A stretch of 64,000 bases of DNA from Treponema sp. OMZ 838 (GTDB taxonomy: Bacteria; Spirochaetota; Spirochaetia; Treponematales; Treponemataceae), in contig NZ_CP009227.1 in the NCBI RefSeq assembly GCF_000775995.1, positions 1,736,001 through 1,800,000 on the forward strand, written 5' to 3'. Numbering within the stretch: the stretch's first letter is position 1; each line of letters opens with the position of its first letter. Under the pieces are notes generated by a model. That model saw nothing but the letters and a program-made list of their open reading frames with translations. It had not been told where the DNA came from and made no database searches. Shown here piece by piece: positions 50,679 to 57,411 of this stretch. The position numbers and the translations under genes were made by a program.

Positions 50679-50742
50679 ACATAACTACTGCTTAGCCTGC
50701 ATTTGCTGCAAAGAAAATATCGGGTTGAAACAGGTGTATTTT
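50679..50742 (-). other. attC site B, partly decayed
   Basis: The ACATAAC core (50679-50685) and inner arm GCTTAGCCTGCATTTG are intact. The opposite inner arm is AAATATCGGGTTGAAAC, but the outer core has become GTATTTT instead of GTTATAT. This site may no longer recombine. Confidence 0.65.
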
Positions 50743-51009
50743 ATTCTTTATAGTTATAGAAAACATAATCTGAATATCTATTTTTCAATATCCATTCATC
50801 TCTTGCTTTTATGCATTCTTTACATATATATTTTTTTCATATCTTTTCTCTTTAACTACACAACCTCCAAGTATAATATCATTACAATTTGGAAAATGAT
50901 TTTCCCTAATATTTTCTACATAATCAAGATCAAGGAATTTTATAAGTCCGTATAAGATTGGTATATTATGTTTTTCCATTTTGCATTTATGTATAATACA
51001 AAGATGCAT
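50741..51009 (-). pseudogene. Cassette 4 Cys/His protein, frameshifted at a seven-A run
   Basis: The frame 50809-51009 encodes MHLCIIHKCKMEKHNIPILY ... FPNCNDIILGGCVVKEKRYE, a small Cys/His protein that looks like a ribbon, then breaks at a run of seven A (50833-50839). Reading -1 from A AAA AAT restores YICKECIKARDEWILKNRYS to a stop at 50741, completing a second CxxC. The intact product would be ~90 residues with CxxH/CxxC metal pairs. It could be a programmed shift, a mutation or a sequence error. The upstream 57-residue membrane frame overlaps its start. Confidence 0.5.
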
Positions 51010-51152: not shown

Positions 51153-51219
51153 ATATAACTTCTCGTTTAATCTGTATTTGCGGTTTGTCTGCAATGTCAG
51201 GTTGAAGCAGGTGTTATTG
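51153..51219 (-). other. attC site C (67 bp), after the restriction-modification cassette
   Basis: Outer cores ATATAAC (51153-51159) and GTTATTG (51213-51219). Inner arms CGTTTAATCTGTATTTGC and GCAATGTCAGGTTGAAG form the paired stem around a short loop. Confidence 0.75.
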
Positions 51220-51224
51220 TGTTA

Positions 51225-52106
51225 TTATTCTATCAGTAAATCAATACCGTAATAGATTTTCGTTTCTCGTATTTGAATAATATCATTTATTTTCCGATCT
51301 GAATACTTCAAAATTTTTTCTCTATATTGAGATTTTATTTTTATATCCTCTATTTCTTTTCTTCTTTTAACAGACAAATCAAGAAAGCCTATGTCTTTAT
51401 CTATTCCTAAAAAATTTCTTTCTAAAAGATTGGCAGCGATTCCAGTTGTTGAACTTCCCGTAAAAGGGTCTAGAATCCATGCATTTTCTTTTGTGGAAGC
51501 AAGAATTATTCTTGCAAGTAAAGGTAAAGGTTTTTGAGTTGGATGTTTGCCAAATGCTTTTTCCCATCTTGCGATTGCCGGTAAAGTCCAAATATCCCTC
51601 ATTTGTGTTCCGCCATTGATTTCTTTCATAAGTTCGTAATTGAAGTAATGTTTTGATTTCTCAGATTTCCTTGCCCATAAAATAAATTCTGTAGAATGTG
51701 TAAAATAACGACAACTCAAATTGGGTGGCGGATTTGTTTTTTGCCAAGTTATACAGTTTAGAATTTTATAGCCGATTTCTTTCATAGACTGAGCGATTGA
51801 AAAAATGTTGTGAAATGTTCCTGAAACCCAAATTGTTCCAGAATCTGATAATTTTTCTCTGCACAAGGAAAGCCATTTTTTGTTGAATTCGTTATCTGCT
51901 TCAAATCCTTTTGATTTGTCCCAGATACCTTTGTTTACAGAAACTTGTTTTCCAGATTTAACAGAAACGCCATCATTACTTAAAAAATAAGGCGGATCTG
52001 CAAAAATCATATCAAATTTAAAATCGAATTGAGGCAATATTTCTGTACAATCGGCTTGTACCAATGTGAAATCATGATTTTCTGATTTAAAATATGATTG
52101 AAGCAT
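51225..52106 (-). CDS. DpnA-like DNA adenine methyltransferase (cassette 3)
   Basis: A 293-residue beta-class enzyme. Motif IV MIFADPPYFLSNDGVSVKSG precedes motif I WILDPFTGSSTTGIAAN. HPTQKPLPLLARIILAS is in place. In DpnII-type systems the second methylase (DpnA) methylates GATC in single- as well as double-stranded DNA. The start ATG follows the REase stop directly (TAA ATG). The neighbours are the DpnII-like endonuclease, a Zn-ribbon protein and a Dam-like methylase, all inside one integron cassette. Confidence 0.88.
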   Translation of the reverse strand: MLQSYFKSENHDFTLVQADCTEILPQFDFKFDMIFADPPYFLSNDGVSVKSGKQVSVNKGIWDKSKGFEADNEFNKKWLSLCREKLSDSGTIWVSGTFHNIFSIAQSMKEIGYKILNCITWQKTNPPPNLSCRYFTHSTEFILWARKSEKSKHYFNYELMKEINGGTQMRDIWTLPAIARWEKAFGKHPTQKPLPLLARIILASTKENAWILDPFTGSSTTGIAANLLERNFLGIDKDIGFLDLSVKRRKEIEDIKIKSQYREKILKYSDRKINDIIQIRETKIYYGIDLLIE

Positions 52107-52985
52107 TTATTTGAAAATTTCTTTCATTACACCATTTTCGATATCGGCAATGTTGTAAATTGTATCTAATACATCAAATGTTTCTTCTAAATTATGGCGG
52201 GCACTTTTCCAGCCTGAACCATCTGTGAACCAAACAAAAGTTACGCCTTTAATTGTTGCAACTTCATGGGCGAGTGTCTTATAGCTTCTTGAAGTTTCAT
52301 TAAGTTTCGAACCTCCTGAACCATAAAAGTTTGTTTCGATTACATAAATTTGCTTGTTAGTCTTTACAACATAATCAAAGCGTTTTTCCATTTTTCCTTG
52401 ATTTGAAATTGCAGATAAATCAGTATTCCACTTTTCTGTAATTTCATGGATGTACATTTCTTTGAAGTAATTTTTATCTTTAATAAAACCTGCTCTTTGA
52501 ATGTAACTTTCAATCAAGTCTTCCATCAAATGACCGCCACGATTTTTGCGGCCATTTGAATCTAGCCCAATTTCAACACCTGTAACATAATCAAACAGAT
52601 TGCTTATTAAATGGTTGGCAAGCAAGTCAAACAATCCTGATTTTTCCATAAAATTTACATATTCTTTTGCTGTGTAATTTGCTTTTACAAAATTGAATGA
52701 AAAACTTCCGTTTATGTCTATTACAGGAATTTTTGAAGTTCTTACAGCAAGCAAAATCGGAATACATTTTAAAGTTTCAGGATATTTTGTAAGAATTGCT
52801 TCGAAATCTGATTTTATATTTTTGGAACCGATAAGAGAATTTAAAATACTAAGTTCAATTTTTATAGAATCCACATTTACGAAAACTTTTTCAAAGTCTA
52901 TGTAATATGAATAAGTTGCAATACTTTCCCTAAAAGTACGAAACCATAGATTAAAATTACGCTTCATTTGAAGTTTCATTCTCAT
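52107..52985 (-). CDS. DpnII-type type II restriction endonuclease (cassette 3)
   Basis: A 292-residue protein matching the DpnII family: SGLFDLLANHLISNLFDYVT, then the catalytic region KRFDYVVKTNKQIYVIETNF (D...E-x-N instead of the typical E-x-K) and GSGGSKLNETSRSYK. The predicted site is GATC by family, not shown here. The start is uncertain: ATG 52985 overlaps the Zn-ribbon gene by 29 bases, and ATG 52967 is an alternative. Two cognate methylases flank it. Confidence 0.85.
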   Translation of the reverse strand: MRMKLQMKRNFNLWFRTFRESIATYSYYIDFEKVFVNVDSIKIELSILNSLIGSKNIKSDFEAILTKYPETLKCIPILLAVRTSKIPVIDINGSFSFNFVKANYTAKEYVNFMEKSGLFDLLANHLISNLFDYVTGVEIGLDSNGRKNRGGHLMEDLIESYIQRAGFIKDKNYFKEMYIHEITEKWNTDLSAISNQGKMEKRFDYVVKTNKQIYVIETNFYGSGGSKLNETSRSYKTLAHEVATIKGVTFVWFTDGSGWKSARHNLEETFDVLDTIYNIADIENGVMKEIFK

Positions 52986-53142
52986 TGTTTATAGGAAAAC
53001 GACAATCTCTACAGTAGGATTGAGGTATGATTTTACCATTCCCCATATTCCGATAACCAAAAAGTTCTTCAATCTGAGCTTTACCTATCGCTATTTTTTC
53101 ACAATTAGGGCATTTTGCATAATCATCTTTTCCGTATGGCAT
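52957..53142 (-). CDS. Zn-ribbon protein of the DpnII-like cassette
   Basis: A 61-residue protein with KCPNCEKIAIG and YCRDCRFPI, a four-cysteine ribbon. Similar small proteins accompany restriction-modification genes and may act in regulation or as DNA-binding accessories; the role here is inferred from position between the Dam-like methylase and the endonuclease. Confidence 0.65.
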   Translation of the reverse strand: MPYGKDDYAKCPNCEKIAIGKAQIEELFGYRNMGNGKIIPQSYCRDCRFPINNENETSNEA

Positions 53143-53168
53143 TTTTTATAGTACCTCCAAATAAAAAA

Positions 53169-54056
53169 TTATAAGCAAGCAACTATTAATTCCGTAATTT
53201 TACCACGTTCGCTTGCCTTGCTGTTTATCATGCGTGAAGCATTTACTCTATGAATCTGATACGGTCTATATAAATCGTCAAAAAAATTATCTTGAGAATT
53301 TACATTTTTGGGATCTGAATTACTAAGCAAAATTTTTGCACCTTTCGCATGAATTTCGTTTACAAAGTTTCCAAGTTCAATCTGTTCTTTATCACCGAAT
53401 TTTTTTTCTGAATATGCTGTAAAAAATGAAGATTCTGTGAGCGGACGATAGGGAGGATCAATGTAAACAAAGGTATTTGAATCAATAAAATTTTTAGTTT
53501 GCTTGTAGTCGCCGGTTCTTATTTCTATATTCTGAAGAACGTCGCTTATGGCAATCAAATTATCTTCATTGCAGATTGCCGGATTTTTATAAACGCCGCT
53601 CGGGACATTGAATAAACCTTTCGAATTTACTCTGTAAAGTCCGTTAAAACAGGTTTTGTTTAAGTAAATCATCAAAGCGGCTTTTTCTAAGGAATTTTCT
53701 TTAGCTTTTATTAAATCGTTAAATCTTTCTCGTTTTTTAAAATAAGTTGTTTTTCTTTCTTCTTGAGTCTGTTTCTGATATTGGTTTTGCCAATTTGAAA
53801 GCAAATTAATTAAGTCCTCTGGAGCATTTTTTATTTGATGATAACAGTTTGTCAGTTCAGGATTTATGTCATTTATTAAAATTTCTTTTGGGCGAAATTT
53901 TAAAAGTACATCAAATAAAACTGCCCCGCCACCAACAAAAGGTTCACAATATTTTTCAATCTTTTGAGGATAAAAATTCCCTATTTCGGAAAGCAGCTGA
54001 CTTTTTCCACCTGCCCATTTCAGAAAAGGCTTTACATCTGTAATCGTACTTCTCAT
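53169..54056 (-). CDS. Dam-like DNA adenine methylase (DpnM type, cassette 3)
   Basis: A 295-residue alpha-class methylase: FLKWAGGKSQLLSEI and motif I CEPFVGGGAVLFDVLL at the N-terminus, then a recognition domain, then motif IV FVYIDPPYRPL. It is the first enzyme of a DpnII-type system and likely methylates GATC. I prefer the ATG at 54056 (MRSTITDVKPFLKWAGGK); the frame extends to a TTG at 54116. No strong ribosome-binding site is seen upstream of either. Confidence 0.9.
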   Translation of the reverse strand: MRSTITDVKPFLKWAGGKSQLLSEIGNFYPQKIEKYCEPFVGGGAVLFDVLLKFRPKEILINDINPELTNCYHQIKNAPEDLINLLSNWQNQYQKQTQEERKTTYFKKRERFNDLIKAKENSLEKAALMIYLNKTCFNGLYRVNSKGLFNVPSGVYKNPAICNEDNLIAISDVLQNIEIRTGDYKQTKNFIDSNTFVYIDPPYRPLTESSFFTAYSEKKFGDKEQIELGNFVNEIHAKGAKILLSNSDPKNVNSQDNFFDDLYRPYQIHRVNASRMINSKASERGKITELIVACL

Positions 54057-54185
54057 TTCTTTAATATAGCAAATTTTTGGATGTTTTTCTATAGCTTCTT
54101 TGTTTTCTCTTTTCAAGAGGAGGTTACCTCACTTTCTCCCATAATAGTCATGTCTCTCTCGGCGGTTCACTGCATAGCAGTATCA

Positions 54186-54339
54186 CAGTAACATTCGCTT
54201 AACCTGCATTTGTACCTTTGCCGACGCGCTTAGCGGCGGCAAAGTTGGCACGAAAGTTGCATAAAAAAAGGGAGCCGTAGGCGACCGTCCAAGCAACTTC
54301 CGTGCCAAAACAAATGTCAGGTTGAAGCAGATGTTAGCT
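54186..54339 (-). other. attC site D (154 bp), after the SIR2-like cassette
   Basis: Outer cores CAGTAAC (54186-54192) and GTTAGCT (54333-54339). The inner arms TCGCTTAACCTGCATTTG and CAAATGTCAGGTTGAAGCAG pair with a few spacer bases. A long middle segment contains CTTTGCCGACGCGCTTAGCG and GGCGGCAAAGTTGGCACG. It is close in sequence to site E. Confidence 0.85.
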
Positions 54340-54344
54340 GATGG

Positions 54345-55388
54345 CTACTTAACTGTCCAAAAACTATTAAGGGTATGATTCGAATTCTGCCTTTCATCAA
54401 TAAACAATTTATCATAATAATTATGAATATCATCCCATGTCATATTTTGTCTGATAGCACCATCTGGATTTAACCACATACAATTCATAAGATTATCAAA
54501 AACACATTCACATGTCCGCCTTGGGAAATTACTTAATAATGAGTTATAGAACGTATCGGTTGTTTGATAATGATGAGTATGTATAAATGGCTGCCATGTT
54601 TTTCTAAGTTCATCTTCTTTTTTGATATCTATTATTTCTATTTGTTCCAAATTTCTTTCTTCACTATTTCCCCATGCTTCTTTAAGCATTCCTATTGCTT
54701 CAATGTCTGATAGTGGGGCACTGTATCCAAATATCGTAACAATATACGCTTTCCTTAAATAATGTTTTAATACATTCCAAGAATCACGAGTATACAAATC
54801 ACTATTATAATTTTTTTGCTTGATAGGATAAAGTAATTTTATTGGTTTCAATGGCTGACCACATACACTACATAAATTTGTAATTAATCCACCACGCTTA
54901 TGCTCTTCACATAAACCAACTGCAACATTGCCATGTAAGAATGATAGTTCAGGTAGATTATCCGTGAATCGTAATGCTCTTTGGTATGCTTGCAAAAGTA
55001 ATGGATCCCAATTAAATGTTGCAACTAAATCTTTCGATCTAAGTGAAAGTAATAATAAATCATATATAGTCGGCTCATTCGGTATTTTTAAATTACTAAA
55101 GTATTCATATATTGTGCTTTCAACTTCTAACTTGACATCACTCAATTCAGGTCTATCATATAATTCAGTATATATATCTTCAATATTGTCTGATTTTGTC
55201 TTTAAATCTACTCCTTTTATTAATTTTTCGAGGCAAAGCTTCTTTAGAAATCCATTCATAACACTGATTTTATTGTTGTTTAAATCACCATTTGGAATTG
55301 TGGCTACTGATGCACCAGCTCCAAGAATTACTATATGAGGTCTATTTTTCATTAGTTTCTCGTATTTCTCAATTTCTTCTTTTTTCAT
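54345..55388 (-). CDS. SIR2-like protein, candidate anti-phage defence (cassette 2)
   Basis: A 347-residue protein with SIR2-type features: the nucleotide-binding loop VILGAGASVATIPNGD (~residue 20), then ATFNWDPLLLQAYQ, LHGNVAVG and a C-x-x-H ... C-x-x-C zinc-like pair (GLCEEHKRGG, LCSVCGQP), and finally FGYSAPLSDIEAIG, which matches the family's GYS...D motif. SIR2-like proteins are used by several bacterial anti-phage systems that deplete NAD. Here the gene is the sole gene of an integron cassette. The family call is likely; the defence role is inference. Confidence 0.7.
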   Translation of the reverse strand: MKKEEIEKYEKLMKNRPHIVILGAGASVATIPNGDLNNNKISVMNGFLKKLCLEKLIKGVDLKTKSDNIEDIYTELYDRPELSDVKLEVESTIYEYFSNLKIPNEPTIYDLLLLSLRSKDLVATFNWDPLLLQAYQRALRFTDNLPELSFLHGNVAVGLCEEHKRGGLITNLCSVCGQPLKPIKLLYPIKQKNYNSDLYTRDSWNVLKHYLRKAYIVTIFGYSAPLSDIEAIGMLKEAWGNSEERNLEQIEIIDIKKEDELRKTWQPFIHTHHYQTTDTFYNSLLSNFPRRTCECVFDNLMNCMWLNPDGAIRQNMTWDDIHNYYDKLFIDERQNSNHTLNSFWTVK

Positions 55389-55415
55389 AATTTATCCTCT
55401 ACCTCGAAAGTATTC

Positions 55416-55570
55416 AGCTAACATTCGCTTAACCTGCATTTGTGGCTTTGCCGGCGCGTAAAGCGGCGGCAAAGTTGGCGCAAAAGTTGCATAAAAAAGG
55501 GAGCTGCAACAGCAGCGACCGCCAAAGCAACTTTCGTGCCAAAACAAATGAGGTTGAGCGGGTGTTAGAT
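55416..55570 (-). other. attC site E (155 bp), after the lipoprotein cassette
   Basis: Outer cores AGCTAAC (55416-55422) and GTTAGAT (55564-55570), the latter perfect for GTTRRRY. Inner arms TCGCTTAACCTGCATTTG and CAAATGAGGTTGAGCGGG, with a middle segment nearly identical to that of site D. Confidence 0.87.
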
Positions 55571-55585
55571 TTTTATTTTTAAATA

Positions 55586-56461
55586 TTAAAATCCAACCAC
55601 TATGGTGTCGTCTTCTGCATCCCCTTCATATACAGTGTACAGTATCTCTTTTTTTAATCCGAAATAGGCAGATGAGCCAATTTCCCATTCAACTGCACTA
55701 CCATCAACTGTTTCAACTTTCAGTTCTACTCCTTCTAAAATTTTACTACCAGATGTTACACTTATATTAGTTGTTTGATTAGTACATTTCACTTTACTTG
55801 CATTAAATTGAATCGTTATTTCTTTTTTATCCTTCTCAGAATAATCTAATTTAATTTCATTTAAATTATTTGCATCGGAAACTTTAACATTATACCACAA
55901 ATAATTAAATTCATATAATTGCTCAATATTTTTTATTTTCCATACAGCAACTTTATCAGAGGGAATATTTTTAGGAGTGAACTCCAACCCGTCCTGTTCA
56001 AGAACTTCAGAGTTTTTTTCTATCTCGCTATCATCCTTTTTACATATAACTTTTGTATCATCAAAAACTATTTTTAACTTTGCTGGGATTTTCAGAGTAT
56101 AACTTACATTGATGGTATTTCCTTCTGCATCATTTTTTGAAATCTTATACCATATACCGGAAGATGTGGCATTTTCTATTTTCTTACCAATCATCCATTT
56201 ATCAACGATCTTCCCAGTGGGAATATTTATTGCAGTAAACCACACCACAGCACCTTCAGCAACCATCATATCACTTGGTATCTCTGCATTATTACTGCCA
56301 TCAAAACACTTTATCTTTGTTTTGTCAAATTTTATTACTATAGTATTCGGATTGCTTGAATTGCCTGAACCAGCGGGATTTTGACATCCTGTTATCACAA
56401 GTACTGCACTAATTATTAAAACTAATGCGCCAATTATTGAAACTACTTTCCTCTGTTTCAT
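55586..56461 (-). CDS. Repeat lipoprotein (cassette 1)
   Basis: A 291-residue lipoprotein. The signal is MKQRKVVSIIGALVLIISAV with lipobox ITGC at residue 26. The mature part contains three copies of a ~85-residue unit, each opening with a beta strand and Lys-x-Lys-Cys: IVIKFDKTKIKCFDGSN, LKIVFDDTKVICKKDDS, ITIQFNASKVKCTNQT. A surface location is inferred. GGAAGG precedes the ATG. Confidence 0.75.
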   Translation of the reverse strand: MKQRKVVSIIGALVLIISAVLVITGCQNPAGSGNSSNPNTIVIKFDKTKIKCFDGSNNAEIPSDMMVAEGAVVWFTAINIPTGKIVDKWMIGKKIENATSSGIWYKISKNDAEGNTINVSYTLKIPAKLKIVFDDTKVICKKDDSEIEKNSEVLEQDGLEFTPKNIPSDKVAVWKIKNIEQLYEFNYLWYNVKVSDANNLNEIKLDYSEKDKKEITIQFNASKVKCTNQTTNISVTSGSKILEGVELKVETVDGSAVEWEIGSSAYFGLKKEILYTVYEGDAEDDTIVVGF

Positions 56462-56563
56462 GTCAACCTTCCTTTCGCAATGTCTTTTTCCATTGCGAGT
56501 TCTATTTCTCAGTCGAATGCCTGTTTCGATTGATTCTGTGCTCGCTTGCCTCTAGGCAGGTCA

Positions 56564-56570
56564 ATCTAAC
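56564..56570 (-). other. Candidate attI core
   Basis: GTTAGAT fits GTTRRRY perfectly and lies at the start of cassette 1. The bases to its left (TTAGAT) complement the outer core ATCTAAC of that cassette's attC. Confidence 0.65.
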
Positions 56571-56618: not shown

Positions 56619-56739
56619 GCTAAACTGTTACAAGATAAGAAATTAAATTTTTCTTCCATAATAAACACCGGAACACATCATCAACAACCAGATTAGGCCT
56701 ATCTTCGCTAAATGGGATAAAGGCGAATCGGTGTACTTG

Positions 56740-56812
56740 AGGAAACACCCATTGCCATGCCCACGCTTTACCTGCAGCGGGATATTTTTTTGCAAGGGCA
56801 GAGGGAAGATTA
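56740..56812 (-). pseudogene. intI: Scar of an integron integrase (IntI-specific segment)
   Basis: The minus strand reads NLPSALAKKYPAAGKAWAWQ followed by WVFPQ, which matches the extra helix region found only in integron integrases (pattern LP.AL..KYP.A...W.WQWVFP) between the two tyrosine-recombinase boxes. Sequence identity stops on both sides: the upstream half is replaced by the SAP-domain gene, and the RHH and catalytic Tyr region are not found. It reads towards the cassettes, as in the T. denticola integron. Confidence 0.7.
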
Positions 56813-56820
56813 AAGTTTCT

Positions 56821-57411
56821 CTATATATTTATCTCTGCGTCAGGGGTGTTGATTTTTTTCCACGTTATATAATCTTTTTTGACTTTCATATCTTTTAGCT
56901 TATTCCATGCCTCTAAAGCATCTTCTCTTGTTGCATTTTTTTCATTTGCCAGATAATCACTGATGAAGTTATTAAATTTACAGGATGGAATTTGAGGAAG
57001 CTTTCCTTCCGTTTTGTTTAACCGAATGTATTCACAAATGACATCATTATACGTTATTTTTTCACCATGAGAAAGTTTGACTTCAATCCATCGATTAAGC
57101 CAATATTTTGCCCCTGATTTCGGTTTTAATCCTCGAACTCGTTTATCCATTTCACTATGTATGAATTCCCATGTTTCTTTTTTGTTGCTAAAATTTTCAA
57201 CATAAGTATGACTATTCAATATGTCTCTATTCCGGCTTTTACTCCGATAACAATTCTTTTTATTCACCGTTCCGGTTTCCAAAAACTGAATAATCATCTC
57301 TTCAAGCTGATCCTTTCGTATTTTTGAATCAAAAGGAATTTCAAGCGATTTTGCTAATGCTTTGAGTTCACTCATGTACCAATATTTATTCTCAAATGCT
57401 TGTATTGTCAT
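56821..57411 (-). CDS. SAP-domain protein (DUF6434-like)
   Basis: A 196-residue protein. The N-terminal ~50 residues (YWYMSELKALAKSLEIPFDS) with KIRKDQLEEMI and a following TGTVNKK resemble the DUF6434/SAP-type DNA-binding helix pair. The rest is basic and helical. It ends seven codons before the integrase scar. A palindrome with CTGT-N8-ACAG at 57448-57463 lies 37 bases upstream, suggesting SOS-type control. It is not obviously a cassette: there is no attC after its stop. Confidence 0.7.
   Translation of the reverse strand: MTIQAFENKYWYMSELKALAKSLEIPFDSKIRKDQLEEMIIQFLETGTVNKKNCYRSKSRNRDILNSHTYVENFSNKKETWEFIHSEMDKRVRGLKPKSGAKYWLNRWIEVKLSHGEKITYNDVICEYIRLNKTEGKLPQIPSCKFNNFISDYLANEKNATREDALEAWNKLKDMKVKKDYITWKKINTPDAEINI

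What the first reader, a model, noticed from the sequence alone, without database searches (positions are those of the whole stretch)
54192..55421. SIR2-like protein as a single-gene cassette, a candidate mobile anti-phage defence
GAGAS loop, FNWDPLL, LHG and GYS...D motifs with a C-x2-H/C-x2-C pair are visible. SIR2-like NADases are common effectors of abortive infection, and cassette arrays are reported to carry defence genes.
Basis: partly seen in the sequence, partly recalled or inferred. Interest (0 to 1): 0.7.

Follow-up and report, generated by a model that had tools for sequence, protein, structure and literature searches.

The report
Zinc-finger SIR2 enzyme in integron cassette
A spirochaete's gene-capture array holds a complete, stand-alone enzyme of the SIR2 (NAD-consuming) type, from an unnamed family that travels with anti-virus genes and prophages and combines the core of bacterial immune SIR2 proteins with the kind of zinc module that ordinary sirtuin deacylases carry; it is probably a one-gene anti-phage defence, but this is untested.

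Summary
Window 54192-55421 is exactly one integron cassette: one 347-aa ORF (54345-55388, minus) whose boundaries are two matching attC sites, in a Treponema-type array whose integrase survives only as a fragment (56728-56808). The upstream cassette encodes a lipoprotein-like protein; the downstream one carries a DpnII-type restriction-modification system.

The protein has no Pfam, NCBIfam or PADLOC match, but its confident model (pLDDT 89) matches SIR2 structures. In about 40 homologues from many phyla, plasmids and prophages, catalytic Asn126 and His152 are invariant. The nearest profile is SIR2_2 (immune sirtuins), yet the family also has a C-x2-H...C-x2-C zinc module, exactly where canonical sirtuins have theirs and where the 11 sampled SIR2_2 proteins have none. 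No neighbour is conserved, so the gene probably acts alone. The surroundings are rich in defence genes compared with those of canonical sirtuins.

Best reading: a single-gene abortive-infection NADase with a zinc module, stranded in a dead integron (about 0.55). The main rival is a NAD-dependent deacylase or ADP-ribosyl transferase. SIR2 fold and cassette status are shown; NADase activity and anti-phage action are inferred. A new variant of a known kind.

The parts
54345..55388 (-). SIR2-like gene, 347 aa; catalytic N126 and H152; zinc module C160-x2-H163...C173-x2-C176; Shine-Dalgarno-like AGAGGA before ATG
   Evidence: ORF; family alignment; AF2 model pLDDT 88.9, pTM 0.89; Foldseek to SIR2 structures
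54186..54339 (-). attC site of the SIR2 cassette (R'' AGCTAAC ... R' GTTACTG), long type
   Evidence: matches 12 other places in the genome; DNA fold z -8.1/-8.4; sequence
55416..55569 (-). attC site of the upstream cassette (R' GTTAGCT); its crossover point is the 5' end of the SIR2 cassette, about 30 nt before the SIR2 ATG
54192..55421 (-). whole SIR2 cassette between the two G^TT crossover points, 1230 bp
55422..56569 (-). first cassette of the array; gene 55586-56461 (291 aa, N-terminal lipoprotein-like signal by eye, no Pfam family)
56564..56570 (-). attI-like GTTAGAT junction between integrase remnant and first cassette (inferred)
   Evidence: sequence
56728..56808 (-). remnant of integron integrase (LPSALAKKYPAAGKAWAWQWVFPQVHR), 92.6% identical to a congener's IntI; rest lost
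   Evidence: TIGR02249 positions 190-223; tblastn with relatives' IntI
51159..54191 (-). downstream cassette with a DpnII-type restriction-modification system (MethyltransfD12 53169-54116, DpnII 52107-52985, N6_N4_Mtase 51225-52106), short attC at about 51153-51217
   Evidence: Pfam; sequence
50680..50744 (-). further short attC-like site, end of the next small cassette
   Evidence: sequence pattern only; fold not better than shuffles

Best explanation
A promoterless integron cassette carrying a stand-alone SIR2-type enzyme of an unnamed family. The enzyme binds NAD+ in a Rossmann/SIR2 core and uses Asn126 and His152 to break the nicotinamide bond. A zinc module sits next to the active site, between LHG and the K-x-Y motif. 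Most likely it works as a one-gene abortive-infection defence: quiet in the healthy cell, switched on during infection (through the zinc module, the C-terminal helices or oligomerisation), depleting NAD+ and stopping phage growth. Shown here: cassette, SIR2 fold, conserved catalytic residues, absence of a conserved partner gene, defence-rich and prophage neighbourhoods. Inferred: NAD+ hydrolysis, phage trigger, zinc binding, abortive outcome.
For: The fold search gives 63 PDB hits at E<=1e-3; all of the 50 listed are SIR2/sirtuin entries, best SIR2/HerA antiphage 8wld (4e-10), also Avs5, ThsA and DSR2. Profile-profile comparison: SIR2_2 97.5% (6.8e-12), canonical sirtuin 70.6% (3.9e-5), unrelated control 3%. 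Catalytic N and H are invariant in 42 rows. No neighbour family is shared by 3 or more of 40 loci, so it is solo. PADLOC families at E<=1e-10: 193 among 130 proteins within 2 genes and 103 among 144 further out (HerA-SIR2, MADS, Cas1/7/8, Gabija, DSR1, AbiL, DRT), against 3 among 83 neighbours of canonical sirtuins. Copies sit in prophages: in L041 beside ninB/ninG, Q and lysis genes; in L014 upstream of terminase and portal; 7 IMG/VR contigs. The next cassette is a DpnII R-M system. Integrons are reported as anti-phage stores (Darracq 2025, Getz 2025, Kieffer 2025, as cited in PMC12444791).
Against: No PADLOC model matches the query, and member hits are weak. The zinc module is a deacylase trait and is missing from the characterised NADase sirtuins (PMC12700824; 0 of 11 sampled SIR2_2 proteins). 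There is no recognisable sensor domain. The PADLOC counts are redundant (many models per protein) and the control comes from other genomes. Some homologues sit among metal-resistance genes. With IntI dead and no proven promoter, expression in this strain is not shown.
Confidence: 0.55

Rival explanations
1. It is a NAD+-dependent protein deacylase or mono-ADP-ribosyl transferase: the zinc module and LLYP segment bind a protein substrate, and NAD+ is a cosubstrate, not the target. It could still serve defence by modifying a phage or host protein, or serve another accessory role.
For: Zinc module at the canonical place (C160-EEH/C173-SVC aligned on the sirtuin C-x2-C pairs), found in 41 of 42 members and 25 of 25 canonical sirtuins but 0 of 11 SIR2_2. 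Canonical sirtuins are Foldseek ranks 2-18. PMC12700824 states the zinc module is required for deacetylation in canonical sirtuins.
Against: No SGIPDFR after GAG-S and no FGE after the zinc module. Zinc-excised tree places the family away from canonical sirtuins (p-AU 0.0136 against one zinc-bearing clade). Profile closer to SIR2_2. The genome already has a canonical sirtuin.
Confidence: 0.25
2. An intact NAD-consuming toxin of another kind of conflict (toxin-antitoxin, anti-plasmid or cassette-stabilising function) with no role against phage.
For: Cassette arrays often carry toxin-antitoxin genes (established knowledge); homologues on plasmids and in mixed mobile contexts.
Against: No conserved second gene that could be an antitoxin in 40 loci, and little room for one in this cassette (the ORF fills 1044 of 1230 bp).
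Confidence: 0.12
3. A silent, passive cassette: the protein is intact but not expressed in this strain, because the integrase platform is dead and no promoter lies in the cassette.
For: IntI reduced to a fragment; only about 30 nt between attC and the ATG.
Against: ORF fully intact with all conserved residues, which suggests recent arrival or continued selection; the Pc region or the upstream cassette may still drive it.
Confidence: 0.08

Closest known systems
SIR2_2 (PF13289) immune sirtuins: ThsA, DSR1/DSR2, Avs5, SIR2 of SIR2-HerA, FAM118
   Same: Core profile (hhalign 97.5%), [ST]xN[YW]D and LHG catalytic motifs, K/D-x-Y after LHG, GYS...D motif; mobile, defence-island distribution
   Different: No Pfam hit; carries a zinc module that SIR2_2 proteins lack; no STAND, TPR, SLOG/STALD, HerA or pAgo partner; single domain plus short helical tail
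Canonical sirtuins (PF02146: CobB, Sir2Tm, SIRT1-7)
   Same: SIR2 fold; catalytic N and H; zinc module inserted right after HG (C-x2-C/H ... C-x2-C then L-x-P)
   Different: Fourth ligand is H/D/C and so on rather than always C; shorter spacer (about 9-10 residues); no SGIPDFR, no FGE; zinc-free tree does not group them
Solo SIR2-like proteins with TFNYD / LHGSxNW / GFSxPxxD motifs (L122, L123 here)
   Same: Join the family in both trees (support 98/96 and 99/99); similar ORF size (355-382 aa), same W..A...L..A..I.IIGFS / FGYS pattern
   Different: The two sampled members lack the zinc cysteines; sequence identity is low and their branches are long
Integron-borne anti-phage cassettes (Vibrio sedentary integrons; mobile integrons)
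   Same: Single small gene between attC sites, not predicted by defence models, next to another defence cassette
   Different: Treponema-type integron with a dead integrase; no phage assay done; no SIR2 of this family found described in the papers read

Membership tests
Integron gene cassette | Gene bounded by attC sites with R''/R' boxes and a foldable single strand | tested here: met
Integron gene cassette | Gene orientation 5'->3' towards its own attC, in line with the array | tested here: met
   Gene, upstream cassette and R-M cassette all on minus with attC downstream; IntI remnant in the same direction, as reported for Treponema (PMC3607928)
Integron gene cassette | Functional integrase in the same genome (needed for mobility, not for being a cassette) | tested here: not met
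   Only a 27-aa fragment beside the array; no hit over the TIGR02249 cut-off in the genome, while congeners G033, G043, G057 have one
SIR2 superfamily (fold) | Rossmann/SIR2 fold with catalytic Asn and His | tested here: met
   AF2 pLDDT 88.9; Foldseek; N126 and H152 invariant and aligned to SIR2_2 N and H
Canonical sirtuin PF02146 | Reaches the Pfam model; SGIPDFR and FGE motifs | tested here: not met
   No PF02146 hit for the query or any of 34 members; motifs absent
Canonical sirtuin PF02146 | Zinc module after HG | tested here: met
   41 of 42 members by pattern, with a variable fourth ligand; aligned on the sirtuin cysteines. Actual zinc binding not tested
SIR2_2 PF13289 | Reaches the Pfam model | tested here: not met
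   only profile-profile similarity
SIR2_2 PF13289 | No zinc module | tested here: not met
   PMC12700824 for the definition
Thoeris ThsA | C-terminal SLOG/STALD domain and a ThsB (TIR) neighbour | tested here: not met
   347 aa with only a short tail; no conserved neighbour
DSR1/DSR2, Avs5 | Large C-terminal sensor region | tested here: not met
   ORF length 347 aa; solved relatives are 833-981 aa
SIR2-HerA | Adjacent HerA gene | tested here: not met
   None in the cassette; among homologues' neighbours two proteins match HerA and two match PADLOC SIR2 models of their own; whether these are the same loci was not checked
Short pAgo-SIR2 (SPARSA) | Adjacent or fused pAgo | tested here: not met
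   No pAgo in this cassette; a separate SIR2 protein with a Piwi-like end lies elsewhere in the genome
Anti-phage defence system | Reduces phage infection | not testable with these tools
   Needs a plaque assay
NADase effector | Hydrolyses NAD+ | not testable with these tools
   Needs an enzyme assay; only catalytic residues checked

The most novel reading that the evidence does not exclude
The family is a distinct type of sirtuin: an immune-type (SIR2_2-like) NADase that acquired a sirtuin-like zinc module independently of canonical sirtuins, and uses that module as its phage sensor or protein-target binder in a one-gene defence system. It would be a natural intermediate between immune NADases and protein deacylases.
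Probability: 0.25. Interest if true: 0.75.

Novelty: new variant of a known kind. Interest (0 to 1): 0.5.

Why it matters
The defence and family models searched here (PADLOC, Pfam, NCBIfam) do not see this family, although it is spread over many phyla and sits in defence islands, prophages, plasmids and an integron. If it protects against phage, it adds a compact one-gene defence that was invisible to annotation, and extends integron-borne anti-phage cassettes to spirochaetes. A recent structural paper (PMC12700824) proposes that the zinc module marks the evolutionary shift from NADase to deacylase. A family with an immune-type core plus a zinc module makes that proposal directly testable by assaying both activities and mutating the cysteines.

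Tried and rejected
Pfam, NCBIfam, PADLOC and PDB sequence searches with the single protein and with the profile or its members: no meaningful hit. attC sites as the usual carrier of homologues: direct flanking repeats were found only in L020 and L023, so homologues elsewhere are mostly not cassettes; the two relatives in the same bacterial family (L130, L131) have no convincing attC-like site and no intact IntI. A conserved partner gene: none. Phage-genome collection and E. coli genomes: no hit. A relative of the zinc-less sister branch in viral contigs: none found. Folding of the two short attC sites as single strands was not better than shuffles, so those two rest on sequence pattern only. 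The first attempt at the second tree failed for a grouping error and was rerun.

Full report
WHAT IS THERE. The window is 1736001-1800000 of a single-contig 2.7-Mb genome. Its attC types and intI orientation fit the Treponema integrons described by Wu et al. 2013 (PMC3607928). Two attC sites, 85-92% identical to one another, lie at about 54187-54339 and 55417-55568. Both strands of each fold far better than 200 shuffles (z -5.9 to -8.4). R'' and R' boxes are readable: AGCTAAC...GTTACTG for the SIR2 cassette, and a site ending in GTTAGCT for the cassette before it. The distance from the upstream crossover to the ATG is about 30 nt, so the cassette carries no obvious promoter but does carry a Shine-Dalgarno-like AGAGGA.

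THE ARRAY. Reading along the minus strand: integrase remnant (56728-56808), attI-like GTTAGAT (56570), a cassette with a lipoprotein-like gene (55586-56461), the SIR2 cassette, a cassette with a DpnII-type restriction-modification system (three Pfam-confirmed genes) ending in a short attC near 51153-51217, then another short site near 50682-50740. The remnant is 27 residues, 92.6% identical to the IntI of a congener, and includes the IntI-specific segment (TIGR02249 positions 190-223). No IntI over the curated cut-off exists in the genome, while congeners G033, G043 and G057 have intact ones. The integron therefore looks dead in this genome, and the cassette cannot be moved in cis. Attachment-like sites occur at about a dozen further places in the genome.

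WHAT THE PROTEIN IS. Neither single-sequence nor profile searches hit Pfam, NCBIfam, PADLOC or PDB meaningfully. Relatives exist in 36 genome loci from many phyla (best-segment identity 36-58%), six plasmid records, seven predicted viral contigs and two further genomes of the same family of bacteria, one copy being broken. In an alignment of 42, T124, F125, N126, W127, D128, L151, H152, G153 and C176 are invariant, and C160 and C173 are in 41. The AlphaFold2 model from 34 sequences has mean pLDDT 88.9 and pTM 0.89. Foldseek gives 63 PDB matches at E <= 0.001; all those listed are SIR2/sirtuin entries, headed by the SIR2 of SIR2-HerA (4e-10), then canonical sirtuins, with Avs5, ThsA and DSR2 also present. 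TM-scores are moderate (about 0.35-0.55), so the nearest subfamily cannot be read from structure alone.

WHERE IT SITS AMONG SIR2 PROTEINS. Profile-profile comparison with alignments built here gives SIR2_2 97.5% (E 6.8e-12), canonical sirtuins 70.6% (3.9e-5) and an unrelated integrase control 3% (E-values for a one-profile search). The SIR2_2 alignment leaves a gap exactly where the family has C160-x2-H163...C173-x2-C176; the canonical alignment places these residues on the sirtuin zinc cysteines. A pattern count finds the module in 41 of 42 family members, 25 of 25 canonical sirtuins with a readable HG, and 0 of 11 SIR2_2 proteins. Trees built with the zinc segment removed place the family with two zinc-less SIR2-like proteins (L122, L123; motifs) at support 98/96 and 99/99, away from canonical sirtuins. 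Holding all zinc-bearing rows together is rejected at p-AU 0.0136. Branches are long and sampling is small, so independent gain of the module is a lead, not a result. The paper on FAM118 sirtuins states that SIR2_2 proteins lack the module, that it is needed for deacetylation in canonical sirtuins, and suggests it came with the shift from NADase to deacylase (PMC12700824).

WHAT IT PROBABLY DOES. Catalytic residues are complete, so NAD+ cleavage is likely (inference from the family mechanism). No gene family is shared by three or more of 40 loci: it probably acts alone. Neighbours within two genes match 193 PADLOC models at E <= 1e-10 (130 proteins), farther neighbours 103 (144 proteins), and neighbours of canonical sirtuins 3 (83 proteins). 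Models are redundant, so these are not protein counts, but the difference is large. In L041 the gene sits in a lambda-like prophage between ninB/ninG, Q and lysis genes on one side and a phage DNA methyltransferase on the other; in L014 it lies upstream of terminase and portal genes. In L020 the gene alone is bracketed by 30-bp repeats that look like a tRNA 3' end, again a one-gene unit. Together with the R-M cassette next door and published reports of integrons as anti-phage stores (cited in PMC12444791), single-gene anti-phage defence is the best reading. Whether it acts by NAD+ depletion, as ThsA and DSR2 do, or by modifying a protein, as the zinc module might suggest, is open; I put 0.55 on NADase defence and 0.25 on deacylase/ADP-ribosyl transferase.

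LIMITS. No enzyme, zinc or phage data. One genome per species is held, so strain-level mobility of the cassette could not be examined. Short attC sites rest on sequence pattern. The defence enrichment uses a control from other genomes and counts models rather than proteins.

Noticed in passing
G000:C1:2184751-2187891 (L132:1752-4892): A 1046-aa protein with an N-terminal SIR2_2 domain and a C-terminal part that looks Piwi/pAgo-like by eye (not domain-tested), next to a DUF262/GmrSD-like ORF: a second SIR2 defence candidate in the same genome.
   Followed up: partly
51159-54191: A complete DpnII-type restriction-modification system (two methyltransferases plus DpnII endonuclease) appears to be one large multi-gene integron cassette.
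   Followed up: partly
56728-57411: Integron integrase reduced to a 27-aa fragment, with an ORF carrying a SAP-like domain (56821-57411) lying where the N-terminal part of IntI would be.
   Followed up: partly
L020:4683-6052: A homologue in a Candidatus Anammoxibacter contig is bracketed by a 30-bp direct repeat resembling a tRNA 3' end, 1.34 kb apart, as if a single-gene unit had inserted there; ARAGORN finds no whole tRNA gene.
   Followed up: partly
L023:4161-6162: A homologue bracketed by a 65-bp, 98% identical direct repeat containing a terminator-like hairpin.
   Followed up: no
L038:1034-3652: Homologue in another genome of the same bacterial family flanked by an HNH nuclease ORF and an AAA_21/AAA_15 ATPase; in a further relative (L039/L040) the gene is split between two frames.
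   Followed up: no
G000:C1 near 566003, 643652-646218, 1151665-1162725, 1474432-1479464: attC-like sites scattered over several chromosomal places away from the integrase remnant, suggesting cassette clusters without integrase.
   Followed up: no
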